DNA from: Methanosphaerula palustris E1-9c
Lineage (GTDB): Archaea; Halobacteriota; Methanomicrobia; Methanomicrobiales; Methanospirillaceae
Reading direction: 5' to 3'
Assembly (NCBI RefSeq): GCF_000021965.1
Contig: NC_011832.1
Location: 1,860,001 to 1,924,000 of the forward strand
Length of the DNA stretch: 64,000 nucleotides
Part shown: in pieces, positions 18,303 to 62,814 of the stretch
How positions within the stretch are numbered: position 1 is the stretch's first letter
How the letters are laid out: each line of letters opens with the position of its first letter
Translations under genes and position numbers: made by a program
The notes under the pieces: model-generated
Told to the model about the DNA's origin: nothing
What the model saw: the letters and a program-made list of their open reading frames with translations, nothing else
Database searches by the model: none

Positions 18303-19133
18303 TTAGATGTTGATCTCCCAGCCGCTTGACCCGGTCCCGGAGTTTTGGTTCGTCCAGGAGACACCCTGTCCCTGGTTTGACTGGTTGCACCAGGCATAAC
18401 CGTTGAAGACGAGCTGGGCCGTTCCGAGGTCCTGAACAGTGTAGTCAACTCTCGTCGCACCACGGTTAACCAGGGACATGTTGTAGGTCTGGTTCACATT
18501 GGTGCCGAGGTTCCCCACCTTCAGATCGACGAATGACAGGTTGAAGTTCTTCGAAGTGTCTGACATACTCTGCCCATAATAGATGGGGTAGGCCGAACCT
18601 GTTGTACATGGTTTCCAATTCTGGGGGCCGTAGTCCTCGAAGTTGCTCGAAGTGAGGGTTTCGTTCACCCCAATGCCTTGACTGATAATGGATTTGTCAG
18701 GGAGAGAGCCATCTGCCGTCGGGGTCCAGGTATACCCACTCGAATTGACCTTGAGGGCAAAGTTGGATCCCGGTGTCCCGTTGAGGGCGGCCATCAGAAT
18801 GAGGTCGTCGTTATACCCGCGTCCACCGGTGTCAGAGATATAGAACGTGCCGGTGGAGTTGCTGCCGTGGTTCACCTGTCCACTGGGGGCATTCCAGGGA
18901 TCGTTTGTGATGTGAAGCGCGTTGAGCCCTCCTCCTGTCAATTTGAAATAATAGGAGCCAGGATCAGTTGTATAATCAAATCTCGCTCCATTAGTCATCC
19001 ATACATCCAATTGATTAAAACTTGACAGTGGATCTGCCGAGACCGGGCAGAGACTGACCAGACCAATTGATAGCAACAGCAGAACCATGGTAAGTCCCGC
19101 GGCTCTTTTGAATCTTTCTTCTTTTAATTTCAT
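18303..19133 (-). CDS. Secreted single-domain DUF3344 protein
   Basis: A 276-residue protein with a signal peptide (about 1-33, AGLTMVLLLLSIGLVSL) and one DUF3344 domain filling the rest. The domain landmarks are GGGLNALHIT, GTFYISDTGGRGYNDDLILM, YGPQNWKP, YPIYYGQ, FVDLKVG and NGYAWCNQSNQGQGVSWTN. There is no anchor or extra module. The counterpart in the second block is the gene at 54625-55485. An oligo-T tract at 18294-18301 follows the stop. The molecular role of DUF3344 is not established; secretion is inferred from the signal peptide. Confidence 0.88.
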   Translation of the reverse strand: MKLKEERFKRAAGLTMVLLLLSIGLVSLCPVSADPLSSFNQLDVWMTNGARFDYTTDPGSYYFKLTGGGLNALHITNDPWNAPSGQVNHGSNSTGTFYISDTGGRGYNDDLILMAALNGTPGSNFALKVNSSGYTWTPTADGSLPDKSIISQGIGVNETLTSSNFEDYGPQNWKPCTTGSAYPIYYGQSMSDTSKNFNLSFVDLKVGNLGTNVNQTYNMSLVNRGATRVDYTVQDLGTAQLVFNGYAWCNQSNQGQGVSWTNQNSGTGSSGWEINI

Positions 19134-19777
19134 ATAAACACCTTTACTCGGGACATCGACACACCATGTTCGATATACCCAGAATGCATCTTTGCTGAGG
19201 AATGATAAATAGTATTCTATTTAATCTTGGGTTAAATTAATCTAATAATGTTAATGTCCCGAAGATCAGACCGGGCGGTGCAGCCCGAATGATGGTAACC
19301 AGATCTTTATCACCAGATGGACTCCGTCGACAGAACGATTGCTGAGAACGGAAAGAGCGATCGAAAAAGAATCCAGGGGGCGTTCGAAAGGAATCCCGCC
19401 TTCGCGCTCCCCCAGGGATCAACAGGGTTTGGAGGAGGCCGGCCGTCCATCACCACCGCCCGGACGGGATCTGATCTGGAAGAAGCGGCGATCACATCGG
19501 TGACGTCGACCCGGCCTCAGTCGCGGTGCTGGGATCCTGGGGATGTCCAACCATGTTCCCGGTGCGAAAGGGAACGAGGCCTCATCGGGAAAGCCGGCAT
19601 CACGGTAACCGAATTCGACACCCGTCTGTGGAAAGGGGGAGGGGTGCCAGACGACAACGCCGTCGCCTGTGAAGACCGCCCGGCTCGGTGGTCTCCACCT
19701 GCGAAAAAGATCCAACCGTCGAGGGTCGTGAGCTCGCTCGCGGACGTCGGACCACCACGGATTCGCCTGCCCTGCTG
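19134..19777. other. Gene-free stretch with AT-rich promoter
   Basis: The part next to the DUF3344 gene (19205-19255) is AT-rich and includes tttaatcttgggttaaatt, a likely promoter for 18303-19133. The rest, 19257-19777, is GC-rich. Open frames of 60-200 codons occur on both strands there, but none has a recognisable domain, a ribosome binding site or protein-like composition. I see no gene in it. Confidence 0.5.
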
Positions 19778-20047
19778 TCAGTACTCGAAATGCTCTTTCT
19801 TTCCGACGGCCAGGACACAGATGACGAGCCGGTTGCGAATGATCCGGAACGTCGCCCGATATTCACCGATCCGAATCCGGTACCGGGGCTTCTCGGGCGG
19901 GCAGCCCCTGACCTTCTTCACGTCCTGACGATGAAATGGATTCGCCGCATACCGCTCGAGTGCGATCTCGATCCTGATACGTGCTGCCTGGGGCAGCACT
20001 GCAAACGCTCGCTCGGCCTGATGGGTGAAGACCACCTCATAGACCAT
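19778..20047 (-). CDS. RelE/ParE-family toxin
   Basis: An 89-residue basic protein of typical RelE size. It begins MVYEVVFTHQAERAFAVLP, followed by the central helix pair, and ends with the conserved strand YRIRIGEYRATFRI and an aromatic C-terminus (KKEHFEY). RelE toxins cleave mRNA in the ribosomal A site; ParE relatives poison gyrase. The R-x-R-I-G-x-Y-R pattern fits RelE. Its ATG overlaps the antitoxin stop by one base (TAATG), so the antitoxin is translated first. Confidence 0.88.
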   Translation of the reverse strand: MVYEVVFTHQAERAFAVLPQAARIRIEIALERYAANPFHRQDVKKVRGCPPEKPRYRIRIGEYRATFRIIRNRLVICVLAVGKKEHFEY

Positions 20048-20304
20048 TATTCCACCAGGGATCGGATCGCCCGATCATCCCCGAGGTCCCTCATGATCTC
20101 CCGCAGGCTGCGAACGCGGCCGGCCTCGATATCTCTCTCGCTCACCCGGATCGCTTCGATCTCTTCAGGGGAGAGCGATTCGTCATCGTACGCTGCATCA
20201 GCCAGCCGTCCGATGAGCTCATCGTAGGTCTCCCGCGGGTAGAGTTTCAGATCGTCCAGTTTCGCCTTGGTCTCTGATCGGAGCTGGACCGTTGTCGTCG
20301 ACAT
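20047..20304 (-). CDS. Antitoxin partner of the RelE-type toxin
   Basis: An 85-residue acidic protein immediately upstream of, and overlapping by one base, the toxin gene. The N-terminus TTTVQLRSETKAKLDDLK resembles the DNA-binding strand and helix of ribbon-helix-helix type archaeal antitoxins. The C-terminal half is acidic and helical, as expected for the toxin-binding tail. It probably neutralises the toxin and represses the operon through the palindrome just upstream. Confidence 0.8.
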   Translation of the reverse strand: MSTTTVQLRSETKAKLDDLKLYPRETYDELIGRLADAAYDDESLSPEEIEAIRVSERDIEAGRVRSLREIMRDLGDDRAIRSLVE

Positions 20305-20310
20305 GATTGG

Positions 20311-20340
20311 TTATAGGGCGCTATAGATGGTTATATTTTT
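20311..20340 (-). promoter_or_regulatory. Promoter and candidate operator of the RelE toxin-antitoxin operon
   Basis: A TATA-like tract (ttatattttt, reading AAAAATATAA on the transcribed strand) at 20331-20340 is followed at 20312-20325 by the inverted repeat TATAG-ggcg-CTATA. Direct repeats of GGTTATA flank it. The palindrome covers the expected transcription start, 8-20 bp from the antitoxin ATG, where an autorepressing antitoxin would bind. Confidence 0.5.
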
Positions 20341-20558
20341 TGGCACACCGACCGGGATCTCGACGCCCTGTGATGCGTCCCCCCGGTCCGGACCGGCCGG
20401 CTAACCTCGATCGCACCCGGACCGATCCCCGGACGACCGGCTCCGGCCGGAAGGGAACGTGGATCCATTAAAAAATACATGAAATATGATCCTGACAAAC
20501 GGATCGGGTCCTGAGGCAAAGAATATAAAAAAGGCGGGTAGTAACCAATCGGATGAAA
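20341..20558. other. Gene-free stretch
   Basis: GC-rich DNA with several ccgg-rich inverted repeats, then a short A-rich run at 20527-20532 beyond the end of the hepT pseudogene. I see no gene. Confidence 0.5.
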
Positions 20559-21043
20559 TTATTCTCTATCTTTCTCCTCCTTCAAAATTCGTATGAGTGC
20601 GATCTTCAGGGGAGGGAGATCCTGTTCAACCGTCGTCCATAACCGCTGGACATGCACATCAAAATAAGCATGGACCGATGTGTCCCGGGTGCCGGCAATA
20701 GCCCGTCAGGGAACATCCGGATATTTCTTCCGGGCTGATTCCAGGACGTGCTTTGCCGCTTCACCGATAATCTCAAGCGCACGGGTTACGGCAAAGACCT
20801 TCTCTTCATTAATCAGGAAATCCCCGGGTTCCATACCTTGAATATAGTGTTGAACGCAACATCCTTGACCAATCGTAGACTCACAGGAGTCGGAGATTGG
20901 TCTATTTTGGATTAGGTGCGTTAACACTATTTGAGAAAACCGGGAATGTATCAACTTTCAGGTTTTCGAATAAAAAAAATTGCCTTTTCTGCAGCATGCA
21001 ACATATCCTCAAGATATACCATGTATTCCCGCGAAGATTTCAT
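20559..21043 (-). pseudogene. hepT: Broken HepT-type toxin gene (insertion plus nonsense mutation)
   Basis: The start ATG at 21043 overlaps the MNT stop (ATGA). The first 25 codons read MKSSREYMVYLEDMLHAAEK and continue to FFI. A 128-bp insertion (20845-20972) then shifts the frame. Removing it joins FFI directly to QGMEPGDFLINEEKVFAV and on to ALEIIGEAAKHV. A second lesion is a TGA at 20706-20708 exactly where HepT proteins have Trp (KYPDVP-W-RAIAG). Beyond it the same frame continues with the HepT RNase motif R-x4-H-x-Y (RDTSVHAYF) to a TAA at 20559-20561. The repaired protein would be about 118 aa, normal for HepT. HepT is the toxin of MNT/HepT modules; this copy cannot be made as it stands. 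Confidence 0.85.
20845..20972. mobile_element. Small palindromic insertion in hepT with 5-bp target duplication
   Basis: About 123 bp of foreign DNA flanked by direct GAATA repeats (20840-20844 and 20968-20972) interrupts hepT. Segment 20845-20930 is a long imperfect palindrome: tagtgttgaacgca near the left end and tgcgttaacacta on the right, with nested arms gaccaatc/gattggtc and gactc/gagtc around a 4-nt loop. A second small inverted repeat (gaaaacc/ggttttc) ends the insert. Excising one repeat plus the insert restores the reading frame. It has no coding capacity and resembles a MITE. No related transposase is in the window. Confidence 0.6.
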
Positions 21044-21369
21044 AAGGGAACTGCCTCACCAAGGATACGATGGCGGAGCGCAGGCTTGATGGTCTCTTCT
21101 TCAACAAGGTCGACCGGGACACCGAGATAGGCGGACAATTCCTGTTCAAGGGCGACCAGATTAAAAAGAGAGATCTTCTGAACCGGATCAAACGCTATCA
21201 GGATATCCAGATCGCTTCTTGTTGTCTGTTCATCCCGCACCCACGAACCAAAAATCTTCATGGAGGTGACCCCGTATGTACGCCTCAATTCCGGCAACCT
21301 CTCCCGAAGAAGACCTTTCATATCTTCCAGAGACCGTGTCATCCGGGTTCTATGGATCATTCTTTTCAT
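21040..21369 (-). CDS. MNT-type minimal nucleotidyltransferase (antitoxin of MNT/HepT)
   Basis: About 109 residues from the ATG at 21369, which follows gggagaattatc. The nucleotidyltransferase core is intact: GSWVRDEQTTRSDLDILIAF has the GS-x-R and S-D-x-D-x-L pattern that binds metal and ATP, and a third acidic residue follows in VPVDLVEEE. In characterised MNT/HepT systems the MNT protein neutralises HepT by AMPylating a tyrosine near the HepT active site. Here the partner gene directly downstream is broken, so this antitoxin is an orphan unless it acts elsewhere. Confidence 0.85.
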   Translation of the reverse strand: MKRMIHRTRMTRSLEDMKGLLRERLPELRRTYGVTSMKIFGSWVRDEQTTRSDLDILIAFDPVQKISLFNLVALEQELSAYLGVPVDLVEEETIKPALRHRILGEAVPL

Positions 21370-21710
21370 GATAATTCTCCCAAGGCTCCACATATTCCTT
21401 GTTTTGGGGTTTCTGTAAGGACAGGGTTTGATCGCACCTACGGTGTTTCTCTCCAGTAATGATGAATGATCGAATAACCATAAAGGTATACCCATCAAAA
21501 AGACTCTCAAGAGATCATAAAAATGGGGGATCAAGAGGGATCTTCCCATTCACCCTGAGGAGGAACGAGTTGCATGCTGTAACCGATGCCCCGGGATCCC
21601 GGTGATACAATTCACCCGGCGATCCGAAGAATCCGGTGAAAAAGACCAAAACCAGGTGAGATGCTGGAATGCAATGGAGAGATCTGGAACCAATGGAGGG
21701 ATTGAACACC

Positions 21711-22013
21711 ATGGACCCGGAAACCGATATCACGCAGCTCCTTCTCAGAAAACGGGATGAGATCATCTCGATGGCAGAGCAAAGAGGAGCCAGAAATATC
21801 CGAATCTTTGGATCCATTGCACGGAACGAAGCCCGTCCTGACAGTGATATCGATCTCCTGATCGACCTGGACCCGGATCGGAGTCTTCTGGATGTCGGGG
21901 GTCTTGCCATGGATCTTTCACGGCTGCTCGATCGACCGGTCGACATCGTGACCGAAGCAGGACTCCGGGACCGGATACGTGCACGGGTGTTGCGGGAAGC
22001 ACGGGCCTTATGA
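21711..22013 (+). CDS. Second MNT-type minimal nucleotidyltransferase
   Basis: About 100 residues from the ATG at 21711, chosen for the ggaggga site before it; the same leader and start are preserved in the scar at 56140-56175. The catalytic pattern is intact: [19 protein letters not shown], then DRPVDIVTE. It is divergent in sequence from the MNT at 21040 and on the opposite strand, so this is an independent module. The stop overlaps the ATG of the following hepT remnant (ATGA). The expected role is antitoxin by AMP transfer, but the partner is not functional. Confidence 0.85.
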
Positions 22014-22344: not shown

Positions 22345-23175
22345 TCATCCCCCGCCGTGACCCTTGCCATCGCCGTGATGATGCTTCCCCCCACCACCAC
22401 CGCCGCCGTCGCCCTTCCTCCCGGTCGGCCGGTCGCCGACATAGGCGTGGACGCCGTTGATCACCACCTCCCGGTCCGGCCCGGACGGCCCTTCGAGCGT
22501 GACCATCTGTCCGGTCTTCACCTTCGTCTCCTTCAGCAGGTTATCCCGCTTCCCGTGCATCTGGATATCCTCGAGCCGGACGTGGAACCCGAACGACTTC
22601 TTCAGCACCATCTGCACCACCCCGGTGTGGGCGATCTGGCGCATACAGTTCGCCGGCAGGAACCGGGCCCGGAAACCGATCGCCGGCTCGGTCCTGATCA
22701 GGTCCGCCCGCCCCTCGAACGCGACCTCCCGGTACGCCTTCAGATCGAAGACCTTCGGACTCCGCCGGGCTGCCAGCGGCCCGACCGTGTGACAGCGGAG
22801 GATCCCCGAGACCGGGTCCCCGTCGAGCACCCGGAGGACATGCTGAATCGGGCATCCCGGGTCGACCGGCCGGCCGATCACGATCGCCCCCGGCCCGATC
22901 CCCAGACGTTCGACCAGCTCCGGCCGAAACGGCTGGATGTACCGCTGCGCCGAGGGCTCACCCGGGAGCGGTCTGAGGATGAAATCGTACTCCGACCCGA
23001 GCAGGTCGGTCCCGTCGTAGACCTCCAGCAGCGCCGACTCATCCAGGTCCAGCCGGCGGGCCTGGTGCGGGCAGTCGGCGAGGACCCGCGTCCCGTTCCG
23101 CATCCCCTCGACAAACTCGCGGCAGCTGCGGACCCCGCAGGCCCCGCAGTCCTTCCCCGGCGGCTCCCACACCAC
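22345..23175 (-). CDS. Fe-S cluster protein with Gly/His-rich C-terminal tail
   Basis: A 276-residue protein with a GTG start 3 bp after the GTPase stop. It opens with a cysteine cluster KDCGACGVRSCREF (residues 8-21), continued by a later Cys at ADCPHQA: the four-cysteine 4Fe-4S pattern seen in corrinoid and CODH/ACS-type Fe-S domains. The middle (about 60-240) has further cysteines (DPGCPIQH, ILRCHTV, PANCMRQ). The tail is low-complexity, with seven consecutive Gly followed by KHHHGDGKGHGGG, resembling nickel-binding tails of HypB or SlyD. It is the last gene of an operon with a GTPase and an ABC ATPase. A role in metallocentre assembly is inferred, not shown. Confidence 0.75.
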   Translation of the reverse strand: MVWEPPGKDCGACGVRSCREFVEGMRNGTRVLADCPHQARRLDLDESALLEVYDGTDLLGSEYDFILRPLPGEPSAQRYIQPFRPELVERLGIGPGAIVIGRPVDPGCPIQHVLRVLDGDPVSGILRCHTVGPLAARRSPKVFDLKAYREVAFEGRADLIRTEPAIGFRARFLPANCMRQIAHTGVVQMVLKKSFGFHVRLEDIQMHGKRDNLLKETKVKTGQMVTLEGPSGPDREVVINGVHAYVGDRPTGRKGDGGGGGGGKHHHGDGKGHGGG

Positions 23176-23178
23176 CGT

Positions 23179-23892
23179 TCAGTCCCCCCGGTAGAGTTCG
23201 TCGGTGGTGTCCAGGGTCCGAATGACCCCGAAGTGGTTCCGCCAGCCGATCTCCTTCTTCCCGGCACAGATCGTGCAGACCCCGAGCGGCGGAGCCCCCC
23301 GGAGGACGATCCCTGCCGGGTCGTCGATCGGAGGACAGCCCTCGACCGCCCGGAAGAGGTACCGGAGGCCGGTCCCCTCGATCGCATTCGTCTCGATGAT
23401 ATCGATCCCCGGCGTCACCCGCCGAATCGCCTCCCGGAAGACCTCCTTCTCGGCCTGCGAGACCAGGTCCGTCTTGGTCACGACCGCGATATCGGCGAAG
23501 GCGATCATCGGCGCCATCTTCAGCGGCGAGTTCGTCCCCGAGATCGCCGGCAGCACCACGATCCCGAGCGACTGAGTGGTGTACGGCGTGCACCTGAGAC
23601 AGAGCCCGGCCGACTCGACGATCAGCAGGTCGGCCTTCTCCTCCACGGCCCAGGTCAGCGCATCGGCGAGCACCAGGATCCCGGTGTGGTCCGGACAGAG
23701 ATCCCCCGAGTAGACCTTCTTCGTCGGGATCGAGAACTCGGCCGCGAGCTCCTCGGCCTCGAAGGCCTGGACCACATCGATCTTCAGATAGACCGTCCGG
23801 TACCGTCCGGCGAACTGCCTGAGGAGCTGCCGGACAACGGCCGTCTTCCCGGCGCTCGGCGGGCCGGCCACGATGAGGAGACGCATCCTCAT
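23179..23892 (-). CDS. SIMIBI-class GTPase, HypB/CooC-like metallocentre maturation factor
   Basis: 237 residues from the ATG at 23892, which overlaps the TGA of the ABC gene (ATGA). A longer frame upstream of this start is the shadow of the ABC gene. The P-loop AGPPSAGKTAV lies at residues 9-19, the switch region KIDVVQAFEAEEL follows, and the guanine-specificity motif is TKTDL. Two CxxC pairs (CLRC near 107 and CTIC near 212) could hold a metal. HypB, UreG and CooC proteins use nucleotide hydrolysis to load nickel or to activate metalloenzymes. The enzyme served here is not identified. Confidence 0.8.
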   Translation of the reverse strand: MRMRLLIVAGPPSAGKTAVVRQLLRQFAGRYRTVYLKIDVVQAFEAEELAAEFSIPTKKVYSGDLCPDHTGILVLADALTWAVEEKADLLIVESAGLCLRCTPYTTQSLGIVVLPAISGTNSPLKMAPMIAFADIAVVTKTDLVSQAEKEVFREAIRRVTPGIDIIETNAIEGTGLRYLFRAVEGCPPIDDPAGIVLRGAPPLGVCTICAGKKEIGWRNHFGVIRTLDTTDELYRGD

Positions 23893-24662
23893 ACCCCCCC
23901 GGTCAGGAGCTCGCCGGCCCGGATCCGTTCCCGGATCGCATGCAGCCGGCCGTCCATCGCGGCCACCTCGGCGAGCGTCTCGGCCTCGACATCCCCCGGC
24001 TCGAGCACCGAGACGACGGCCCCGTTCCGCATCACGATCCGCCGATCCGAGAGGAGGGCGACGAACGGGTCGTGGGTGACGAAGAGGACGGCCCTGCCGT
24101 ACTCCCGCAGCCGGGCCATCACCCGGTCCTTGAAGATCCCGGCGTTCTCCACCTCGTCGAGGAGGATGATCGGGGTGTTGCTGACCAGCAGGGCGTCGGC
24201 GATCATCAGCGACCGGGTCTGCCCCCCGGAGAGCCGGGTCATCCGCATCTCTCCCGAGAGCGCCTCGCCGGTGAACTCGTTCGCGAGCGCGATCGTCTCG
24301 TCGACCGTCTCCGCCGAATCGAGCCCGCGGGCCGCACAGTGCATCTCGAGGAACTGCCGGACCTGCAGATCGGCCAGGCACTTGCTCGTCTGGGCAATCA
24401 GGGCGATTGGCTTGTTCGCCGGATCCCGGCAGATCTGCTCGGGCGGCGCCTCTCCGTTCACCAGCACCGTCCGGCCGGTCACCGTGTCCTGCTCGGCGAA
24501 GACCTCGATGTCGTTGATCAGCGCCGACTTGCCCGACCCCGTCGGGCCGACGATCGATATCGTATCGCCGGCGCGGATGGTCAGTTCGTCGAATGGCTCT
24601 CGATGGCCGTCCTTCGCCGTTCCCGGAAGGATGGTGATTGTCTGAATCGTGAAGTGTTCCAC
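23889..24662 (-). CDS. ABC-type ATPase, first gene of the maturation operon
   Basis: A 257-residue single-domain ABC ATPase: Walker A GPTGSGKSAL, signature LSGGQTRSL, Walker B PIILLDEVENAG and switch histidine VTHDPF. No permease gene is adjacent. Instead the gene is translationally coupled to a GTPase and an Fe-S protein, so it may be a soluble energy-coupling factor rather than part of a membrane transporter. That is an inference from context. The upstream 124 bp is shared with the divergent DUF3344 gene at 24787 and is AT-rich (cataacgttaagttgattt near 24690). Confidence 0.82.
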   Translation of the reverse strand: MEHFTIQTITILPGTAKDGHREPFDELTIRAGDTISIVGPTGSGKSALINDIEVFAEQDTVTGRTVLVNGEAPPEQICRDPANKPIALIAQTSKCLADLQVRQFLEMHCAARGLDSAETVDETIALANEFTGEALSGEMRMTRLSGGQTRSLMIADALLVSNTPIILLDEVENAGIFKDRVMARLREYGRAVLFVTHDPFVALLSDRRIVMRNGAVVSVLEPGDVEAETLAEVAAMDGRLHAIRERIRAGELLTGGV

Positions 24663-24786: not shown

Positions 24787-25872
24787 ATGCAGAGAAGAGA
24801 TGAGAACGGACACGGTTGGTATCGCCAGAAGACACAGCCCCCAAAGAGAAGGGGAGGAGGGCTCGCCCTTCTTCTCTTCCTGGGCATCCTCCTCTTCATC
24901 CCCCCGGGTGGAGCGGCCCCCATCGCCGACTATAATAATGTCATGATACACGTGGCCAATCCCGAAGGCCCGGCCTACAATGTCTTCGGAAACGGGTCCT
25001 ACCTGAGCCGGTTCGAGGGGGTCGACCGCGGGCTCAACGCCCTGCACATCTCCACCGACCCTGCCGTGAACTTCGGCCAGGTGACGACGACCGCCAACCA
25101 GTCAGGAACCTTCTACGCCACCGACTCGGGCGGCAAGGGCTACGAGGACGATATCCTCCTCCTCGTCGCCGTGAACGGCACGATCCCCGACGACTTCAAA
25201 CTCCATGTCACGGCCGACGGCTACACCTGGACCCCGAACCCCATCAGCAATACGGCCCCGACCTCCTCCACCTACAACGCCACCACTCTCGACGAGACCT
25301 TCACGAAAGCCGACCTCATCTACGGCCCGCAGAACTGGAAACCGACCGGCAACGGCTACTCCTATCCGATCTATTACGGACAGGACACGAACGACACGAC
25401 CAACACCTTCCAGGTGATGCTCATCGATCTGAACGCCGGCGTGCTCAGACCGAACGCAGCGCTCGAGAACCAGGGAGCCGTCAGGATCCACTACTCGTTC
25501 GAGAACCTCTCCTCGTTCGCGGCCTTCAACGTCTACGGCTACTGCAAGACCTCGAACAACGGCTTCGACATGATCGCCTGGACGAACTCGCTGATGCCAG
25601 ACCGGACCCCAAGCGGCTACTCGGTCACGGCCTCGTCGCCGGTTTTGAAGATCCTTCCCCTCCCGGATCAGCAGCATGCCCCCCTGGACCATGACGGCGA
25701 CGGACGATACGAAGACCTGAACGGAAACGGACAGGCCGACTTCTCAGACGTGGTCCTCTTCTTCAACCAGATGGACTGGATCGCGGAGAATGAACCCGTC
25801 GACGCCTTCGACTTCAACAAGAACGGAAAGATCGACTTCGGCGACGTGGTCTCCCTCTTCATCAGGATCTGA
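24787..25872 (+). CDS. Secreted DUF3344 protein with dockerin-like C-terminus
   Basis: 361 residues. A basic N-terminus (PPKRRGGG) leads into a signal helix (LALLLFLGILLF, about 26-37) ending near GGAAP. DUF3344 spans about 45-285 (RGLNALHISTDP, YATDSGGKGYEDDILLLVAV, YGPQNWKP, YPIYYGQD). The C-terminus (about 300-361) has two calcium-loop repeats of dockerin type I form: DHDGDGRYEDLNGNGQADF and DFNKNGKIDFGDV. The ribosome binding site is ggagatgacag. The DUF3344 domain is very close to the third DUF3344 of giant protein C. Dockerins bind cohesins, but no cohesin is visible in the window. A scar of a second copy of this gene is at 56239-56340. Confidence 0.88.
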   Translation: MQRRDENGHGWYRQKTQPPKRRGGGLALLLFLGILLFIPPGGAAPIADYNNVMIHVANPEGPAYNVFGNGSYLSRFEGVDRGLNALHISTDPAVNFGQVTTTANQSGTFYATDSGGKGYEDDILLLVAVNGTIPDDFKLHVTADGYTWTPNPISNTAPTSSTYNATTLDETFTKADLIYGPQNWKPTGNGYSYPIYYGQDTNDTTNTFQVMLIDLNAGVLRPNAALENQGAVRIHYSFENLSSFAAFNVYGYCKTSNNGFDMIAWTNSLMPDRTPSGYSVTASSPVLKILPLPDQQHAPLDHDGDGRYEDLNGNGQADFSDVVLFFNQMDWIAENEPVDAFDFNKNGKIDFGDVVSLFIRI

Positions 25873-25973: not shown

Positions 25974-26224
25974 AACATTTATATCAACCCACTCCAACAC
26001 TAGTTTAGGTAGATTTCGTTTGGTGAAATCTCCACTTTCTCTGCCAGTGATCGATGTGTGGCCCATACTGGATATGTACAGACCCCACTGGACCCGTCCA
26101 CTCCCTGGCAGGGAATCATTCGGATAAAAAATAACTGCAATCGGTGATACTGTGACCACGCCTGTTCTCTGGATAGACCCTTCATGCGTCACTGATTGTA
26201 CACCCCCCACTGGTGATGGAAACC
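25974..26224 (+). promoter_or_regulatory. Promoter and long conserved 5' leader with hairpin
   Basis: A TATA-like element (tttatatca, 25978-25986) lies about 240 nt before the start at 26225. The leader is conserved with that of 56689-59052: a hairpin at 26011-26031 (AGATTTC, 7-nt loop, GAAATCT), the identical 15-mer ggatatgtacagacc at 26070-26084, and a ggcag-gaatcattc segment near 26115-26129. Untranslated conservation of this length suggests a regulatory RNA leader. Confidence 0.5.
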
Positions 26225-43960: not shown

Positions 43961-44005
43961 GTCTGGTACGTCTCCGATCTCTTGTTGAGAGACTGTGGAT
44001 AACAT

Positions 44006-55945: not shown

Positions 55946-56056
55946 TCGCCGTGGCGCTTTTCCCCCACTACCCCCGCTGCCGTCTACCCTTCTTCCCGAC
56001 TAACTTGGCCGCCTACATAGGCGTGGACCCTGTGGATCCCCACCTCCAGTTGGAAT
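55946..56056 (-). pseudogene. Scar of the Fe-S/His-tail protein gene
   Basis: About 110 bp resembling 22369-22475, the region that encodes the Gly/His-rich C-terminus of the Fe-S protein. It shares ccatcgccgtg, the ccaccac-rich stretch and acataggcgtggac, then diverges. No reading frame survives. Confidence 0.6.
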
Positions 56057-56060
56057 GGTT

Positions 56061-56195
56061 CACCTGGTGATCCGAAGAATCCAGTGAAGAAACACTGGGA
56101 CGTGGTGAGATATCGAAATACATTTTAAGTTCTGGTTCCTGGAGGCACTGAACACCATGGACCCGGAAACCAGGCATCCCGTGGTCGATATCATC
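56061..56195 (+). pseudogene. Scar of the MNT/HepT locus
   Basis: 56061-56175 resembles the leader and start of the MNT gene at 21603-21730: gtgatccgaagaatcc, then ggaggcactgaacaccatgg and acccggaaacc. The text then jumps to ggcatcccgtggtcgatatc, matching the hepT remnant at 22109-22130. Unlike the first copy, this one keeps ccgtgg (Pro-Trp), so it split off before that hepT codon decayed. Confidence 0.6.
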
Positions 56196-56238
56196 ATAGG
56201 TATAAGGTGGTGTTACACTGAATCATCAATGTCCACCC

Positions 56239-56340
56239 CAGGACTGTAACGGCGACGGACGATATGTGAACCAGAACGAAAACGGGCAGGCTGACTTCGA
56301 CGACGTGATGCTCCCCCATTCATTCAGATCTGACCGGATT
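56239..56340 (+). pseudogene. Scar of a DUF3344-dockerin gene
   Basis: Reads DCNGDGRYVNQNENGQADFD in one frame, the first calcium loop of the dockerin-like end at 25690-25760, then breaks off into LPHSFRSD and a TGA. The rest of the gene is gone. Confidence 0.65.
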
Positions 56341-56442
56341 GATCAACCTTCAACCGGGGTGTGGATCTGATGCAGATCTTCAAACCCGATCTTCGCAGAC
56401 AGTAAATCATTTTTTATTGATTAGATAGGTTATTTAATAATG

Positions 56443-56688
56443 TTTATATCACTATACTTCAACTGGTGATCAGGTAGATTTCGCTTCGTGCAATCTCCCC
56501 CTTCTCTGTCAATGATCACGGCGTAGTCCATTCTGGATATGTACAGACCTTTACCAGAGTGATACACCGCCACTGGCAGTGAATCATTCAGAAAAAGACC
56601 CGCAAATCCGTGATACGGTGACCATGCCTGTTTAGGGAATGATCTTCACGCATCGCTTATAGTTCCCCCCAACCTGGTGAAATGAATC
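56443..56688 (+). promoter_or_regulatory. Promoter and conserved 5' leader, second copy
   Basis: A TATA-like tttatatc at 56443-56450 is followed by a leader homologous to that at 25974-26224: hairpin AGATT/AATCT at 56476-56496, the identical 15-mer ggatatgtacagacc at 56535-56549 and ggcagtgaatcattc near 56575. Its length to the start codon is almost the same as in the first copy. Confidence 0.5.
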
Positions 56689-59052
56689 ATGCCCGACTCA
56701 AAACATACGACACTGACCTTTCTCATACTGATACTGCTCCTGGCCGTGGTGCTGCTGGTAGCACCCGCAGGTGCAGAACCTGTACAGACGAACGGAACAT
56801 CATCCATCGGAGTCGACCAGACCCAGGAACTGAAAGATTCCGCAGCCCTCCCCGCACCCCGGCATATCTTCATCAACGTGGCGAACGATGCCGGCGTGAA
56901 GTACAACCTGGACGGAGCGGCCCTGGGCGGCCCGGACAACACCTACTATATCAAGGCAGACAACGGGGGCCTGAACGAACTGCACATCACCAGCGACGTG
57001 AACGCACCCTACGGCCAGGTCACGACCTCCGGCGCCCAGTCCGGAACCTTCTATGTCTCGAACACCGGGGGGAGGGGCTCTGATGACGACATCATCCTCC
57101 TCGTCTCGGTGAAGGGACCGATCCCCGACGATTTCAGTTTCCATGTGAAGTCGAGCGGCTATACCTGGACCCCGTCGACCGTCATGAATGCGAATCCCAC
57201 CGAATATCACTATGTGACAGGAGTCGACGAGACCTTTACGAAGTCGGACCTGATCTACGGACCACAGACCTGGAAACCCGGCTCTGGAGATCTGCCCCTC
57301 TACTACGGACAGGACATCAACGACGCCTCGACGGCACAGTACCTGATGTTCATCGATCTCAAAGCCGGAAACATGAAGCCGGCAACATTCCCGAATGACA
57401 CCCTGATCAACAATGGAGCATTGAAGATTGATTACAGTTTCACAAACCTGAATACCTTTGCCGCCTTCAATGGATACGCCTGGTGCCTTTCAACGACCCA
57501 GGGGCAGGGGATCACATGGACGAACCAGCCCTTCACCGATGCCGCCAGCGGATACACGGTGACCGGCATCCCACGCCCGACCACAACAGCAACCACCACG
57601 GTTCCAACTTCGGCACAAACAACAGCAATCACCACGGTTCCAACATCAGCACAAACAACAGTACCGACCACAGGTCCGACTGCTGTGTATACGACTGTAC
57701 CAACGACACGAGCAACAACCATCGCAACGACAGTATCTACGTCTGTGCCGACGACACCTCCAGTGACCCCGACTCCCACGGTGCAGCCGCTGGTGACCAA
57801 CTTCACGGCGAACGTGACTGCCGGCCAGTCCCCACTCCCGGTGCAGTTCAACGATACGACGACTGGTGCAGTCCAGAGTTACTTCTGGCAGTTCGGCGAC
57901 GGCGGTGCCTCGTTCGATCAGAACCCTGTGCACACCTACACGACCGCCGGCACCTACACCGTCTCCCTCGTCGCCAGCGGCTCGAACGGAGCTCAGGTGA
58001 AGACGATCGAGCGGTACATCAATGTCACCGTACCAGCGACACCAACCCCAACCGTGACGATGGCAGGTCAAATCCCCAATCACTACCACAACTATCTCCA
58101 TGTTGCAAACGATGAAGGTCCGCGTTTCGACTCTTATAACAATGGAACCTACTACCAGGGGCAGGACAATGGAGGGCTCAACGCCGTCTGGCTGACCCAG
58201 AACCTGTCTACCGTTCAGGGTCAGAAGATCACCACCAGCAATAAATCGGGCACCTTCTATATGATGGATACCGGTGGCCGGGGATGGGAAGATGACGGAC
58301 TGGTGATGCTCGCGGTCAACGGGACGATCCCGGATGACTTCAAGGTACACATCCGGACAAGCGGCTATACCTGGACTCCGATCTCAAAGAATCTCAGACC
58401 AACCATCGACCAGATCACCTATGTGGACGGGGCGCTCGACGAAACATTCACAAAGGACGATCTCATCTATGGCCCACAGCTCTGGAGGCCGGCAGGGGCG
58501 GCAAACTATCCGATCTATGACGGCCAGAATATGACGGATACCAACAACACCTTCCGGATAATGTTCATCGACCTGCGTGCAGGAGTCATCGGCTCGAACA
58601 CCACCGCGGGATCTCCGCCCCTTCAGAACAATGGTGGAATCAGGGTCGATTACTCGTTCGAAAACCTGACCACGTTCGCCGCCTTCGATATCTATGGCTA
58701 CTGCAAGGACTCCAACGCGGGAGAGGGGATCTCATGGACAAATGCTGTGAACACCTTCAGCCAGATCTCACACGGTCAGGCGTCGATTGGAAGTGGACTC
58801 TGTGTGATTGGTGTGCCGTCTTCGACAGCCCCGATCACTATCCCATCAGCGACCCACCCCCCCACCGACCCCAACGGCGACGGTCTGTATGAAGACCTGA
58901 ACGGAGACGGAGCTGCAGACTTCAACGATGTGGTCCTCTTCTTCAACCAGATGGACTGGATCGCCGACAATGAACCGGTCACCACCTTCGACTTCAATAA
59001 AAACGGCTCCATCGACTTCGATGACGTGGTCCTCCTCTTCAACATGCTCTGA
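56689..59052 (+). CDS. Secreted PKD protein with two DUF3344 domains and dockerin-like end (second-block copy)
   Basis: 787 residues: signal peptide (1-31); DUF3344 (about 58-294); Thr/Pro linker (295-360); one PKD (366-447); DUF3344 (463-710); dockerin-like pair (GDGLYEDLNGDGAADFNDV, DFNKNGSIDFDDV). Compared with the paralogue at 26225 it has lost one PKD, and its first DUF3344 is of the A/B giant type (GGPDNTYYIKA, LLVSVKGPIPDDF) rather than the Thr-rich type. The start ATG follows cctggtgaaatgaatc. An oligo-T tract at 59064-59070 ends the transcript. Confidence 0.9.
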   Translation: MPDSKHTTLTFLILILLLAVVLLVAPAGAEPVQTNGTSSIGVDQTQELKDSAALPAPRHIFINVANDAGVKYNLDGAALGGPDNTYYIKADNGGLNELHITSDVNAPYGQVTTSGAQSGTFYVSNTGGRGSDDDIILLVSVKGPIPDDFSFHVKSSGYTWTPSTVMNANPTEYHYVTGVDETFTKSDLIYGPQTWKPGSGDLPLYYGQDINDASTAQYLMFIDLKAGNMKPATFPNDTLINNGALKIDYSFTNLNTFAAFNGYAWCLSTTQGQGITWTNQPFTDAASGYTVTGIPRPTTTATTTVPTSAQTTAITTVPTSAQTTVPTTGPTAVYTTVPTTRATTIATTVSTSVPTTPPVTPTPTVQPLVTNFTANVTAGQSPLPVQFNDTTTGAVQSYFWQFGDGGASFDQNPVHTYTTAGTYTVSLVASGSNGAQVKTIERYINVTVPATPTPTVTMAGQIPNHYHNYLHVANDEGPRFDSYNNGTYYQGQDNGGLNAVWLTQNLSTVQGQKITTSNKSGTFYMMDTGGRGWEDDGLVMLAVNGTIPDDFKVHIRTSGYTWTPISKNLRPTIDQITYVDGALDETFTKDDLIYGPQLWRPAGAANYPIYDGQNMTDTNNTFRIMFIDLRAGVIGSNTTAGSPPLQNNGGIRVDYSFENLTTFAAFDIYGYCKDSNAGEGISWTNAVNTFSQISHGQASIGSGLCVIGVPSSTAPITIPSATHPPTDPNGDGLYEDLNGDGAADFNDVVLFFNQMDWIADNEPVTTFDFNKNGSIDFDDVVLLFNML

Positions 59053-59293: not shown

Positions 59294-61306
59294 TCAGTCT
59301 TTAATCTGTAGATCTTTCTGCAGATTCGTCCTCTGCCGGAGATACAGAAGCCCGATCACGAGCAGGAGCAGAAGCAGAACCATGATGATCAGCCCTGCAA
59401 AGACGAGCAGAGCGAACAGTAGTACTGCCCCGATCAGCAGAAGCAGACTCAGATCTGACGATGAGAGCCGATCGATGGTCGACTGGATCGTCGAGAGGAA
59501 GTTCTGTGACGAACTCCGATCCCGGGACGAGGCGGCACCGGACGAACCGGAGATAGAGACCGGCGAGAACTCGTTCTGGTTCCCGGTATCGAGAAGAGGG
59601 AGGGTCGGCGTCGTCATCACCGGGGTGCTGGTGTTCATCTGCGTCGGAGAGGGCGTTGGAGCGGCGGACTGCGTCTGGGTCGGAGTGGCAGTCGTGGGGA
59701 TCGACGTCGCCGTCGTTCCGACCGTCCCTCCGACTCCGGTGTAGTCATCGCTCGAAGAACCGGATGATGAGTCGCCGGTCGAAACCGGCCCTCCGGCGGA
59801 ATTACTACTGGTACTACCCGTCGACGGTGAAGAAGACTGGGTTGCGATCGTCTGAGAATATTGAGAGGAGGAAGTAGCCGGCACCGCGGTGGCGATCGAT
59901 GCGACTGTCTGCACACCCTGAGCGGTCACGGTCGCCTGGGCAGAGGAAGCACTGGGTACGACCGTCCCCGCACCTGATGTGGGAGACTGGACCTGGGAAG
60001 CACCGGTCACCGCCTGGGCCGGAGCAGAGGTCTGGATGCGTGAAGGGAAGAGCGTGCTCAGGGCGGGCACCGTCACCGACGGCTCAGAACTAGTGGTCCC
60101 CATGGCCGATGGAACAGCGGTGAGCGATGCCTGCACTGTGGTCTCTGAGACCGTGACCCCGGTGGTGGTGCCGACGGTCACAGGAAGAGCGGTGGCGGTG
60201 TTGACCGGCTGAGATGACGTCGCCGTCACCGTCGAGGTGACCGTCACGGTCGTACCGGGCGTGGCAGTCGGCGTCGTCGTCGACGTGGTGAGCGGCATCA
60301 CGGTGGAAGGAACCGCCATCGTCGAAGTCACGGTGATCGTCGTTGCAGGTGTCGTTTGATTGACGATGACGGTCGGCGTGACATTCAGCGTCGTCTCGAT
60401 GATAGTGGGTGTCTCTGTCGGGGTAACAGATACCGTCGTGTTCGGCGTCGTAACCGTCGTGGTGGGTTCTGTCGTGGTCGGTAGTGGTGTGGGGGTGGGC
60501 TCGATCCCTTTCACCGTGAACCCGCTGCTGCCCGAATCAGAGAGACGATTGGTCCATGAGATCCCCATACCCTGGGTGGAGTTCAGCACCCAGGCATAGG
60601 CATCGAAGGCGGCGAACGTGGTCATGTGTTCGAACGAATACTCGACCTTGATGGCACCATAGTCCGTAAGAGGAGGAGCGCTGGAATTCACCCCATTCTT
60701 ACCGATGACCCCGGTATGCGTATCGATGAACATCAGATGGAACTGCTGCGAAGCATCCCCCATATCCTGACCGTCATAGATCGGATAGTTCATGGGCCCG
60801 GCCGGCCTCCAGTTCTGGGGTCCATACGTGAAATCCGACTTGGTGAAGGTGCTATCGATCGTCCCATCCACATACGTGGTTTCATTTGGTAACTGATTGG
60901 CCACAGTGGATGGGGTCCAGGTATAGCCGCTCGTCCGGATGTGAACCTTGAAGTCATCCGGGACATCCCCCTTCACCGCGAGCAGGAGAATCCCGTCATC
61001 ATCAGAACCTCTCCCCCCGCTATCGGTGATATAGAAGACCCCCGACTGGGAATCTGAAGCGATCGAACTCCCGTAATATTGCGAGGGGTCTCCAGAGATA
61101 TGAAACGCATTCAGACCTCCTCCTGAATCAAATTTAAGATATCGCTCCCCCCCATTCGCCATGGCGATATTGATATGATAGTTGCCAGGGAGTACGCTCT
61201 CAGCTCCGACAGGAACAGTAATAATGAGTGCGAGTAGGATCAGGGCGAAACTGATCACCACCGACAGTGAAGCATAATAGTTTGGGTGAATTATCTTAAG
61301 TGTCAT
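59294..61306 (-). CDS. Thr/Ser-rich DUF3344 protein with C-terminal membrane anchor, copy 3
   Basis: 670 residues with the architecture of 29861 and 32021: signal peptide (1-36), DUF3344 (about 46-275, GGLNAFHISGDP, SDDDGILLLAVKGDV, YGPQNWRP), Thr/Pro/Ser stalk (about 278-590), a GSSGAASSRDRSSSQNFL segment and a long C-terminal hydrophobic region ending LRQRTNLQKDLQIKD. It is present once in this block, so the pair in the first block arose after, or was reduced independently of, the block duplication. Confidence 0.88.
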   Translation of the reverse strand: MTLKIIHPNYYASLSVVISFALILLALIITVPVGAESVLPGNYHINIAMANGGERYLKFDSGGGLNAFHISGDPSQYYGSSIASDSQSGVFYITDSGGRGSDDDGILLLAVKGDVPDDFKVHIRTSGYTWTPSTVANQLPNETTYVDGTIDSTFTKSDFTYGPQNWRPAGPMNYPIYDGQDMGDASQQFHLMFIDTHTGVIGKNGVNSSAPPLTDYGAIKVEYSFEHMTTFAAFDAYAWVLNSTQGMGISWTNRLSDSGSSGFTVKGIEPTPTPLPTTTEPTTTVTTPNTTVSVTPTETPTIIETTLNVTPTVIVNQTTPATTITVTSTMAVPSTVMPLTTSTTTPTATPGTTVTVTSTVTATSSQPVNTATALPVTVGTTTGVTVSETTVQASLTAVPSAMGTTSSEPSVTVPALSTLFPSRIQTSAPAQAVTGASQVQSPTSGAGTVVPSASSAQATVTAQGVQTVASIATAVPATSSSQYSQTIATQSSSPSTGSTSSNSAGGPVSTGDSSSGSSSDDYTGVGGTVGTTATSIPTTATPTQTQSAAPTPSPTQMNTSTPVMTTPTLPLLDTGNQNEFSPVSISGSSGAASSRDRSSSQNFLSTIQSTIDRLSSSDLSLLLLIGAVLLFALLVFAGLIIMVLLLLLLVIGLLYLRQRTNLQKDLQIKD

Positions 61307-61338
61307 TGAATCATCTCCATCGAATAGATTTTAAGGCC

Positions 61339-61471
61339 CGTCCATCCGGAAACAGGCAGGCGATAGACAAACACCAGATCGTCTGGCCAGCAAGGCAGCG
61401 GCCATCAGCATCTCGGCTTTCCGGATCCTGGAACGCTGAGCATCCACGATATGCCCGAGACCGGCGGTCAG
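61339..61471 (-). pseudogene. Scar of ecfT
   Basis: About 130 bp homologous to ecfT: its 3' end (cgtccatccggaaacaggca, as at 34022-34041), then, after an internal deletion, the region of 34227-34325 (gccatcagcatctcggcttt and atatgcccgaga). It encodes nothing. Confidence 0.7.
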
Positions 61472-61474
61472 GGG

Positions 61475-61697
61475 ACTCGGAGAGGGTTTTGATCAGCAGG
61501 ATCTTTGCGATATAGGGCACACCTTTGAGCAGGAGATGCCCGCCGGGCGAGGAGGGCGATATCAGATGATCGATCACCGGCGCCTGCCCCACACAGATCG
61601 TGTTGATCTCCTGACAGAATGGGGTGAGCGGTTGCTGATAGGTCAGTGCATTCGTGTTTGTTATGGCAATATCCAGGGCTATCGTCTTTGGTGCTCC
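61475..61697 (-). pseudogene. Scar of moxR (5' part)
   Basis: Homologous to 42621-42845, the N-terminal third of moxR, including the P-loop region (tcagcaggatctttgcgata on the plus strand) and the start region. It has frameshifts, and Ile replaces a conserved Gly in the P-loop. It joins directly to the ecfT scar, which marks one large deletion. Confidence 0.72.
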
Positions 61698-61764
61698 ATC
61701 AAATCATCTTGCAGTTCAAACCGTTCAATGAAGAGAGAGGATGAGATCGTTCTCTCTGTCGTGA

Positions 61765-62814
61765 TCATGGGGACCCACTCAGTCCAAGCGAATGGAAGAG
61801 CGCTGAAAACCAGCCGGTGATCGTATCCACCAGACCTAGATTATGCTGTGATGCCGGCGATGACGTCGGTGCCGCGCCCGAATTGTTGCCATTACGGGGA
61901 TGCGCCGGCGTGGATCGGCTGGCAGGATCCAGGGTGGTCGTGTTCGATGGGGTGAAGTCGGAGAGGGACTGCGAACCATAGACATCATAGCCGCTGCTGC
62001 CGGTATCGGAGACCCGGTTGCTCCATGAGATCCCCTGGCCCTGATTGGACTGATCATTGTAGGAGTAGATATTGAAGGCAGCCTTGGTCGTCATATTCTC
62101 AAGGGAGTACTCCACCTTTGCAGCCCCATTGTCCCGCATGCCGGCGAGATTACTGTTAGAACCCAGGGCACCGACGTTCAGGTCGACGAAGAGGAGCGAG
62201 TAGGTGTTGGCCGGGTCCTTCATATCCTCCCCTTCGATCAGGGGATAATTCTCCGGTCCGGCTGGTTTCCAAGCCTGAGGTGCATATATGAAATCAGATC
62301 CTGTGAAGGTCTCGTTCAACGCCCCCTCAGTATAGGTCATATTGCTCAGATCGGGTGGTTGGTTCAGGACAGGAACTGGAACCCACCGATATCCATCTGA
62401 TCGAATATTGACCTTGAAATCGGCGGGAACTTTCCCCTGCACCGCGAGCATCAGAATGAGATCGTCATCAAAACCCCTCCCGCCGGTATCTGATACATAA
62501 AAGAACCCGGACGAACTGGTGGTATTGGTCACCTGCCCGAACGGCTCATTTGGATTGTTCGTAATATGCAGAGAACTTAACCCGCCACCATCAAATTTGA
62601 TATAATAGGTGTTGTTGTGGAAGAGATCAAACCTGGCGCCATCAGTGTTGGAAACCTGGACATTGATATGGTTCTTCGCGGAGATCTGTTCCTTAACGGT
62701 ATCTGCGGCCAGAACCGGCAGAACACATACCAAAACCAGGACCAGGGTCATCACACAGATGAAAGCAGCGAATGATCTTCGGTTTTTTGAAAATTTCACA
62801 GGTCTTTTATTCAT
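61765..62814 (-). CDS. Secreted DUF3344 protein with hydrophobic C-terminal helix (second-block copy)
   Basis: 349 residues: signal peptide (about 1-36, AAFICVMTLVLVLVCVLPVL), DUF3344 (about 42-280: GGGLSSLHITNNP, YVSDTGGRGFDDDLILMLAV, YAPQAWKP, YPLIEGEDMKD), a Thr/Pro/Asn linker identical in long stretches to the 42911 paralogue, and a C-terminal helix (DTITGWFSALFHSLGLSG). The conserved 3' flank between this gene and the moxR scar matches that between 42911 and moxR. Confidence 0.87.
   Translation of the reverse strand: MNKRPVKFSKNRRSFAAFICVMTLVLVLVCVLPVLAADTVKEQISAKNHINVQVSNTDGARFDLFHNNTYYIKFDGGGLSSLHITNNPNEPFGQVTNTTSSSGFFYVSDTGGRGFDDDLILMLAVQGKVPADFKVNIRSDGYRWVPVPVLNQPPDLSNMTYTEGALNETFTGSDFIYAPQAWKPAGPENYPLIEGEDMKDPANTYSLLFVDLNVGALGSNSNLAGMRDNGAAKVEYSLENMTTKAAFNIYSYNDQSNQGQGISWSNRVSDTGSSGYDVYGSQSLSDFTPSNTTTLDPASRSTPAHPRNGNNSGAAPTSSPASQHNLGLVDTITGWFSALFHSLGLSGSP

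What the first reader, a model, noticed from the sequence alone, without database searches (positions are those of the whole stretch)
18303..62814. Two paralogous surface-protein blocks, the second stripped of its non-surface genes
Gene order and strands match between 4.6-44.0 kb and 44.4-62.8 kb: giant protein(s), small DUF3344, [accessory scar], PKD/DUF3344/dockerin (+), Thr-rich DUF3344 (-), [ecfT-moxR scar], DUF3344 (-). In the second block the toxin-antitoxin genes, maturation operon, dockerin gene, ECF operon and MoxR operon survive only as short scars, while every DUF3344 class except the dockerin-only and swapped forms remains intact. This looks like duplication followed by selective retention of surface proteins.
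Basis: partly seen in the sequence, partly recalled or inferred. Interest (0 to 1): 0.85.

Follow-up and report, generated by a model that had tools for sequence, protein, structure and literature searches.

The report
Stripped duplicate of a surface-protein locus
In a peat-bog methane-making archaeon, a chromosome stretch coding for surface proteins was copied next to itself, and the copy then lost its transporter and helper genes, leaving fragments, while its surface-protein genes stayed intact.

Summary
The window lies in a 2,922,917-bp single-contig genome, the published length of Methanosphaerula palustris E1-9C. The two collinear blocks are real. Block 2 (44.34-62.93 kb) holds surface genes in the order and strand of block 1 (4.57-44.08 kb). 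Between them lie remnants: cbiQ pieces joined to the first ~75 codons of moxR, a FeS-gene end, a nucleotidyltransferase-gene start and a dockerin-gene end; five control comparisons gave no match. Relative G004 shows four elements of block-1 order once; trees make three gene classes lineage-specific duplicates. Best reading: one tandem duplication, then loss of the core operons from copy 2.

Corrections: the repeated domain is not DUF3344; the small pair looks older (dS 2.0 against 0.5-0.9; sisterhood not excluded); one display domain was exchanged. 'Selective' retention rests on open frames and dN/dS 0.23-0.44, not on counts: only two runs of genes were lost.

Context: core genes sit beside such surface genes in 30 of 30 loci read in the order (most chosen for that); one other genome carries a stripped core.

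The parts
4637..12301 (-). giant A: DUF7948, beta-propeller repeats, 12 PKD stretches, C-terminal CBM_6; two copies of the surface domain
   Evidence: Pfam; domain positions
12780..18020 (-). giant B: 9 PKD stretches, CBM_6, one surface domain; no DUF7948 match
   Evidence: Pfam
18303..19133 (-). small surface gene, type 1
   Evidence: groups with G091/G128 small genes in tree, 88/52
20047..20304 (-). DUF7557 antitoxin-like gene; no trace found in block 2
   Evidence: Pfam; tblastn
20381..20455 (-). fragment of the FeS gene inside block 1, left of the nucleotidyltransferase gene; may explain the swapped order of scar pieces in block 2
   Evidence: matches 22856-22932, 78%
20706..20954 (-). HepT-like gene
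   Evidence: Pfam
21040..21549 (-). nucleotidyltransferase-domain gene
   Evidence: Pfam
21669..22013 (+). second nucleotidyltransferase (MNT-like) gene; its start survives as a scar in block 2
   Evidence: Pfam
22345..24662 (-). accessory operon: FeS protein (22345-23175), HypB-like GTPase (23179-about 23880), ABC ATPase (23889-24662)
   Evidence: Pfam; same three genes beside surface genes in G091, G075, G128, G159
24787..25872 (+). surface-domain gene with sub-threshold dockerin; lost from block 2, but its domain is sister to one in giant C
   Evidence: Pfam; tree 100/99; pS 0.23
26213..28762 (+). PKD/surface/dockerin-like gene, block 1
   Evidence: Pfam
29861..31909 (-). Thr-rich surface gene 1a with C-terminal hydrophobic stretch
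   Evidence: sequence; tree
32021..33982 (-). Thr-rich surface gene 1b
   Evidence: sequence; tree
34024..38268 (-). ECF operon: CbiQ (T), fused double ATPase, PF09819 S component, permuted surface-domain protein (36888-37634), 197-aa protein (37675-38268)
   Evidence: Pfam; halves of the permuted protein match opposite halves of the domain
38461..42832 (-). MoxR operon: 508-aa Bat-like, VWA/BatA, DUF58, MoxR
   Evidence: Pfam
42911..44005 (-). 364-aa surface gene, block 1
44405..54292 (-). giant C, block 2 (3295 aa): DUF7948, 14 PKD stretches, CBM_6, three surface domains
   Evidence: Pfam
54625..55485 (-). small surface gene, type 2; probably an older paralogue of the block-1 small gene
   Evidence: dS 2.04; groups with G012 small gene 100/99; sisterhood with type 1 not rejected
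55936..56047 (-). scar: 3' end of FeS gene (matches 22360-22471, 75%)
56059..56171 (+). scar: upstream region and first codons of the nucleotidyltransferase gene (matches 21611-21725, 77%)
56222..56680 (+). scar: end of the dockerin gene with an internal deletion, then the upstream region of the PKD gene (matches 25667-26216)
56689..59052 (+). PKD/surface/dockerin-like gene, block 2; first domain derived from the giant-type domain
   Evidence: 100/98 with giant A/B domains; p-AU 0.0034 against pairing of first domains
59294..61306 (-). Thr-rich surface gene, block 2
   Evidence: tree 100/97 with 1a and 1b
61339..61471 (-). scar: pieces of cbiQ (matching 34226-34263 and 34283-34323; a weak third, 34021-34109, E 0.005)
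61460..61690 (-). scar: first about 75 codons of moxR (matching 42607-42832), truncated but still an open frame; two compensating one-base gaps in the DNA alignment
61765..62814 (-). 349-aa surface gene, block 2
   Evidence: tree sister of 42911-44005, 100/99; dS 0.55

Best explanation
A locus in which large surface proteins surround two core operons (MoxR-DUF58-VWA-Bat and an ECF transporter with a permuted surface-type domain) was duplicated in direct tandem in the Methanosphaerula lineage. In the right-hand copy the core and accessory operons were removed by several deletions, leaving fragments, while the surface genes stayed under purifying selection. The intact left-hand core serves both copies (inferred). 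Afterwards surface domains were exchanged between paralogues, and parts of the downstream third of the giant genes were homogenised by gene conversion. Shown: collinearity, scars, tree positions, open frames. Inferred: one duplication event, order of deletions, shared use of one core.
For: Direct collinear matches that include non-coding and broken-gene sequence, without other strong match in the genome and absent from five controls. Relative G004 shows the same order and strands once: S382(+), S551(-), CbiQ to MoxR(-), S416(-). The 364/349-aa pair (100/99), the Thr-rich trio (100/97) and the second PKD domains (99/96) are sisters to the exclusion of 13 relatives sampled. dS of the retained pairs lies at 0.47-0.61, with PKD at 0.87. 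moxR scar differences at codon positions 1/2/3 are 12/76, 12/75, 24/74, as expected if the copy died early. Pairs have dN/dS 0.23-0.44. Giant genes show runs of identical 4-fold sites: A-C at codons 1955-2000 reached in 3 of 5000 shuffles, B-C at codons 1385-1440 in 6 of 5000.
Against: The small pair (dS 2.04) and the first PKD domains (p-AU 0.0034) do not fit one event without replacement or reciprocal loss. Two scar pieces are in swapped order. The search at genus level found no second genome of the genus, so lineage specificity is bracketed only by other genera. The S416 gene of G004 is not firmly placed with the 364/349 pair (62/10). The gene-conversion scan is not significant for Thr-rich pairs (4997, 1045, 1134 of 5000 shuffles reach the observed value), the 364/349 pair (3520), the small pair (4834) or giants A-B (264), and marginal for PKD (233). 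The moxR remnant is truncated but has no stop, and its position 1-2/position 3 ratio (about 0.5) is not higher than that of the retained surface pairs (0.43-0.64), so neither shows decay by itself.
Confidence: 0.72

Rival explanations
1. Block 2 is a xenologue: a stripped or whole block from a sister species recombined in beside the resident block.
For: dS about 0.5 between blocks would also fit divergence between species; the small gene of block 2 groups with G012 and that of block 1, weakly, with G091/G128.
Against: Three other gene classes are each other's nearest relatives among 73 domains. No donor is known; the genus search reached only this genome.
Confidence: 0.13
2. Piecemeal duplication: surface genes were copied several times separately, carrying scraps of flanking genes with them.
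For: Unequal ages (small pair, PKD domain 1); swapped order of two scar pieces.
Against: Order and strand of four gene classes (giant, PKD, Thr-rich, 364/349) agree with block 1 over 18.6 kb, with scars of the right genes in both gaps. The cbiQ-moxR scar sits exactly between the two surface genes that flank the full operons in block 1, as in G004.
Confidence: 0.12
3. No selection for surface genes: a few chance deletions removed redundant genes, and what remains is simply what was not yet deleted.
For: Lost genes lie in two runs, and those runs also took two surface-family genes. Chance of both lost runs being the non-surface ones is 1 in 10 (my arithmetic). Some genomes do keep extra copies: 9 of 101 genomes with the 197-aa gene have more than one match, G019 has a second close MoxR.
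Against: At dS about 0.5, frames of up to 3,295 codons remain open with dN/dS 0.23-0.44. In the stretches read from 29 relatives, no core gene is seen twice in 28, setting aside an extra ECF-ATPase partial match in G004 and in G142, while surface domains number 1-12 (several stretches are cut).
Confidence: 0.25
4. Block 2 is ancestral and the core operons inserted later into block 1.
For: None beyond block 2 being shorter.
Against: Block 2 holds parts of the core genes, and the core lies beside surface genes in relatives.
Confidence: 0.01

Closest known systems
Tandem segmental duplication with differential gene loss (general process; recalled, not from a call)
   Same: Direct neighbouring copies, partial pseudogenes, purifying selection on kept genes, later conversion between copies.
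   Different: An archaeal surface locus; loss hits the transporter and MoxR operons as whole runs, and display domains are exchanged between copies.
PF11824 DUF3344 surface domain
   Same: Similar length; repeated in large proteins of the same order (43 of 120 genomes). In G057 and G077 both domains even lie in one open frame (2673 and 3531 aa).
   Different: No profile match and no profile-profile match; M. palustris has none over the cut-off. In G091 and G045 the DUF3344 genes lie far from the surface locus described here.
YkoEDC group I ECF transporter (PMC5037267, passages only)
   Same: S component (here PF09819), one ATPase with two fused domains, one T component, in one operon.
   Different: Extra permuted surface-type protein and 197-aa protein in the operon; no Rfam match, so no THI box found in the window; the S-component profile reaches no solved chain at E up to 1. 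Substrate unknown.
G159 locus (L075-L078), a relative in another family of the order
   Same: Surface genes with a stripped core: intact 197-aa gene beside a broken cbiQ (stop, internal gaps), ECF S, ECF A and permuted gene missing there.
   Different: Two further cores are kept; the three 197-aa proteins are only 53-65% identical, so an old event or transfer.

Membership tests
DUF3344 (PF11824) | match to the Pfam profile above its cut-off | tested here: not met
   0 of 18 domains match it at E up to 10 (HMMER's filters drop most matches above 0.1); own genome 0 over cut-off; 43 of 120 genomes of the order do match
DUF3344 (PF11824) | distant similarity by profile-profile comparison | tested here: not met
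   hhalign probability 0.1% with 12 DUF3344 domains from relatives; a permuted relationship was not tested
tandem segmental duplication | direct collinear copies including non-coding sequence | tested here: met
   two scar pieces in swapped order
tandem segmental duplication | copies are each other's closest relatives | tested here: inconclusive
   met for the 364/349 pair, Thr-rich trio and PKD second domain; not for the PKD first domain (p-AU 0.0034) nor, in the best tree, for the small pair (p-AU 0.30)
tandem segmental duplication | similar synonymous divergence of all pairs | tested here: inconclusive
   0.47-0.61 for giants, Thr-rich and 364/349; 0.87 PKD; 2.04 small pair
YkoEDC-type ECF transporter | S component, fused double ATPase and T component in one operon | tested here: met
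   Pfam (PF09819, two ABC_tran stretches in one 501-aa protein, CbiQ)
YkoEDC-type ECF transporter | sequence match to the solved YkoE | tested here: inconclusive
   no chain at E up to 1 with a 10-sequence profile
YkoEDC-type ECF transporter | THI-box control of the operon | tested here: not met
   no Rfam family at gathering score in the window
YkoEDC-type ECF transporter | thiamine binding | not testable with these tools
   needs a binding assay
dockerin domain proteins | Dockerin_1 above curated cut-off | tested here: inconclusive
   22.2, 22.2 and 21.3 bits against 22.9

The most novel reading that the evidence does not exclude
The surface proteins and the permuted domain in the ECF operon are parts of one uptake system: many surface-displayed copies of the domain capture a scarce micronutrient, the permuted single-domain protein hands it to one ECF transporter, and MoxR/Bat proteins help assemble the array. 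Duplication then pays only for capture proteins, so copies of the transporter and MoxR core are stripped again and again while display domains multiply and recombine.
Probability: 0.17. Interest if true: 0.7.

Novelty: new member of a known kind. Interest (0 to 1): 0.45.

Why it matters
It gives a readable case in archaea of how a surface-protein repertoire grows: whole-locus duplication, loss of the machinery from one copy, then domain exchange. It points to a core (MoxR operon plus ECF operon with a permuted surface domain) that keeps company with an unnamed surface family in several families of the Methanomicrobiales, which makes a link between surface arrays and nutrient uptake testable. 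It also removes a wrong label: the family is not DUF3344.

Tried and rejected
DUF3344 membership: rejected. Fold of the domain: AlphaFold model of 42914-43867 with 18 window sequences, mean pLDDT 70.4, pTM 0.72; Foldseek had 0 PDB matches at E up to 0.001, and the second look gave best Z 7.4, in the range its note calls common; I draw from it only that the model is mostly strands. Solved-structure searches with the domain profile, the 197-aa protein and the S component found nothing at E up to 1. Rfam at gathering score: nothing. Third block beyond the window: no collinear run of scars in 20 kb left and 40 kb right; isolated matches only (an antitoxin-like, a dockerin-like, an ABC and an 84-base match). 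Microhomology at deletion joints: neighbouring pieces overlap by 8-24 bases in the cbiQ/moxR scar, but the block-1 sequences at the cbiQ-moxR joint are only loosely alike; not claimed. Codon-position ratio as a test of decay: not discriminating. Literature: Methanosphaerula palustris + genome (62 papers, 12 listed, one read whole); DUF3344 (2 papers; of one I saw a table passage, of the other only the listing); Methanomicrobiales + surface protein + PKD domain (0 papers); archaea + MoxR + DUF58 + surface + gene cluster (1 paper, listing only); archaea + gene conversion + tandem duplication + cell surface (7 papers, listing only, none on this by title); YkoE + ECF transporter + S component (2 papers; passages of one); archaea + segmental duplication + surface + pseudogene (22 papers, 10 listed, none on this by title); Methanosphaerula + dockerin (0); two of Methanomicrobiales / MoxR / ECF transporter (4 papers, listing only). 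I found no description of this locus in those searches; most subscription papers are not in that library.


Full report
Where it is. The window is bases 1860001-1924000 of a 2,922,917-base single-contig genome. That is exactly the published length of Methanosphaerula palustris E1-9C (PMC4645200, read whole); the identification rests on this equality. The search with the 364-aa protein found 19 matches at E up to 1e-5 in the genome, all in this window.

What the genes are. The surface genes share an unnamed domain of about 230-250 residues. None of 18 members matches a Pfam family with significance (best E 0.034). PF11824 (DUF3344) has no match over its cut-off in this genome, although 43 of 120 genomes of the order carry it; profile-profile comparison gives 0.1%. 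In two relatives (G057, G077) DUF3344 and this domain lie in one open frame, so they are different domains that can share a protein. Between the surface genes of block 1 lie: a toxin-antitoxin-like group (DUF7557, HepT-like, two nucleotidyltransferases), an operon FeS-HypB-like-ABC, an ECF operon (PF09819 S component, fused double ATPase, CbiQ, a permuted surface-domain protein, a 197-aa protein) and a MoxR-DUF58-VWA-Bat operon. The permutation is seen in sequence: the N-terminal half of that protein matches the C-terminal half of the domain and the reverse.

The two blocks. Nucleotide self-comparison gives direct matches from 4573/44340 at the left to 44076/62932 at the right. Outside the surface genes, block 2 keeps only pieces: 55936-56047 (FeS gene end, 75%), 56059-56171 (nucleotidyltransferase start, 77%), 56222-56339 and 56275-56680 (dockerin-gene end and PKD upstream region), 61339-61471 (pieces of cbiQ, the outermost weak) and 61460-61764 (first ~75 codons of moxR and upstream, 77%). 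The accessory scar matches nothing else in the genome at E below 0.07. For the cbiQ-moxR segment the hits are block 1 or other surface genes. Searches of the two scar segments against three 20-kb flanks, the first 4.5 kb of the window, and with reversed queries gave no match at E 0.01.

Direction. Block 2 holds joined fragments of genes that are whole in block 1, so block 2 is the reduced one. In relative G004 four elements have the same order and strands once: surface gene (+), surface gene (-) that is sister to the Thr-rich trio (99/93), CbiQ to MoxR (-), surface gene (-) whose place in the tree is unsure (62/10). The moxR remnant differs from intact moxR at 12/76, 12/75 and 24/74 sites of codon positions 1, 2, 3, which fits loss soon after duplication. 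But the same ratio is seen in live surface pairs, and the remnant, though cut to 72 of 329 residues, has no stop, so this is no proof of decay.

Ages. dS (Nei-Gojobori, own script): giants A-C 0.60, B-C 0.60, A-B 0.47; Thr-rich 0.49-0.61; 364/349 0.55; PKD 0.87; small pair 2.04. In a tree of 73 domains, 18 from the window and the rest from 13 relatives, the 364/349 pair (100/99), the Thr-rich trio (100/97) and the second PKD domains (99/96) are sisters. The small genes are not: type 2 groups with G012 (100/99), type 1 weakly with G091/G128 (88/52); a clade test does not reject their sisterhood (p-AU 0.30). I read the small pair as older paralogues, each kept in a different block (inference). 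The first PKD domains are not sisters (p-AU 0.0034): the block-2 one groups with domains of giants A and B (100/98). The domain of the dockerin gene, which block 2 lost, is sister to a domain of giant C (100/99, pS 0.23). So display domains move between paralogues. Homogenised runs in the downstream third of the giant genes are significant for A-C and B-C (3 and 6 of 5000 shuffles), borderline for A-B (264) and PKD (233), and absent for the other pairs.

Swapped scar order. The FeS piece precedes the nucleotidyltransferase piece in block 2, the reverse of block 1. Block 1 itself carries a fragment of the FeS gene at 20381-20455, left of the nucleotidyltransferase (78%). A second FeS copy left of the toxin-antitoxin genes in the ancestor would explain both; this is inference.

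Context in the order. The domain occurs in 41 of 199 genomes of the order at E up to 1e-8. The 197-aa core protein occurs in 101 of 199, and in 37 of the 41 (64 of the other 158; Fisher p 4e-9; relatedness not corrected). I read loci in 30 of the 41 genomes. Six relatives (G051, G031, G091, G075, G128, G047) were picked by surface hits alone, before the 197-aa search; the other 23 were picked knowing that MoxR or the 197-aa gene lay near. All 30, M. palustris included, have core genes next to surface genes, sometimes with surface genes between the MoxR and ECF operons or between the ECF ATPase and CbiQ (G051, G089, G045) (several loci are cut by the 20-kb fetch limit). Surface-domain counts per relative's locus run from 1 to 12. 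In the stretches read, no core gene is seen twice in 28 of 29 relatives, setting aside a partial ECF-ATPase match in G004 (likely another ABC gene) and in G142 (50 codons with a stop, beside its own ECF ATPase; not followed up). Elsewhere in the genomes extra copies do occur: 9 of 101 genomes have more than one 197-aa match, and G019 has a second close MoxR. The exception within the locus, G159, has two cores and a third reduced to an intact 197-aa gene and a cbiQ piece with a stop and gaps: a second, separate stripped core. Surface genes also occur away from the core in some genomes, for example G026 and G075, and four of the 41 genomes lack the 197-aa gene (G029, G116, G152, G158).

How it works, as far as can be said. 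Shown: duplicated locus, stripped core, open surface genes with pairwise dN/dS 0.23-0.44. Inferred: one core serves both copies; extra core copies here are redundant, extra surface proteins are useful. The ECF triple has the layout of YkoEDC (PMC5037267, passages only), but no riboswitch was found and the substrate is unknown. That the surface domain and the permuted domain in the ECF operon bind the same ligand is a guess worth testing.

Verdict. The process is of a known kind; the company of this surface family with a MoxR/ECF core in several families of the order is the more interesting lead.

Noticed in passing
36888-37634: Circularly permuted form of the surface domain inside the ECF operon; seen in 27 of 29 relatives' loci read, the other two (G075, G047) being cut before that place.
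   Followed up: partly
37675-38268: 197-aa core protein, 36-64% identical in other genomes of the order, without Pfam match; weak NCBIfam hit to the C-terminal part of methanogenesis marker protein 11 (E 0.0013, far under the cut-off).
   Followed up: partly
22345-24662: FeS, HypB-like and ABC operon that accompanies the surface locus in G091, G075, G128 and G159; function unknown.
   Followed up: partly
L077 3553-4394 (G159): Independent stripped core: broken cbiQ directly beside an intact 197-aa gene, with two further cores nearby.
   Followed up: partly
L056/L057 (G051), L083 (G045), L105/L106 (G089): Surface genes between the ECF ATPase gene and cbiQ, splitting the operon.
   Followed up: no
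L112 14824-14973 (G142): Extra 50-codon ECF-ATPase match with a stop just after the ECF ATPase gene; remnant or frameshift.
   Followed up: no
G057:C1 35293-38811 and G077:C29 355033-359820: Open frames that hold both DUF3344 (PF11824) and the surface domain described here.
   Followed up: no
L014 9440-11569 (window scale 93440-95569): Array of repeats about 60% identical in DNA to the C-terminal ends of the three giant genes, about 29 kb right of the window.
   Followed up: no
L014 1798-2000 (window scale 85798-86000): Minus-strand match of about 60% to the dockerin-like ends of three window genes.
   Followed up: no
L015 5121-6839 (window scale -14879 to -13161): Tandem repeat with a period of about 420 bases left of the window.
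   Followed up: no
22285-24645: 786-aa ORF on the plus strand is antisense to the FeS/HypB-like/ABC operon and rich in Arg and Pro; likely not a gene.
   Followed up: yes
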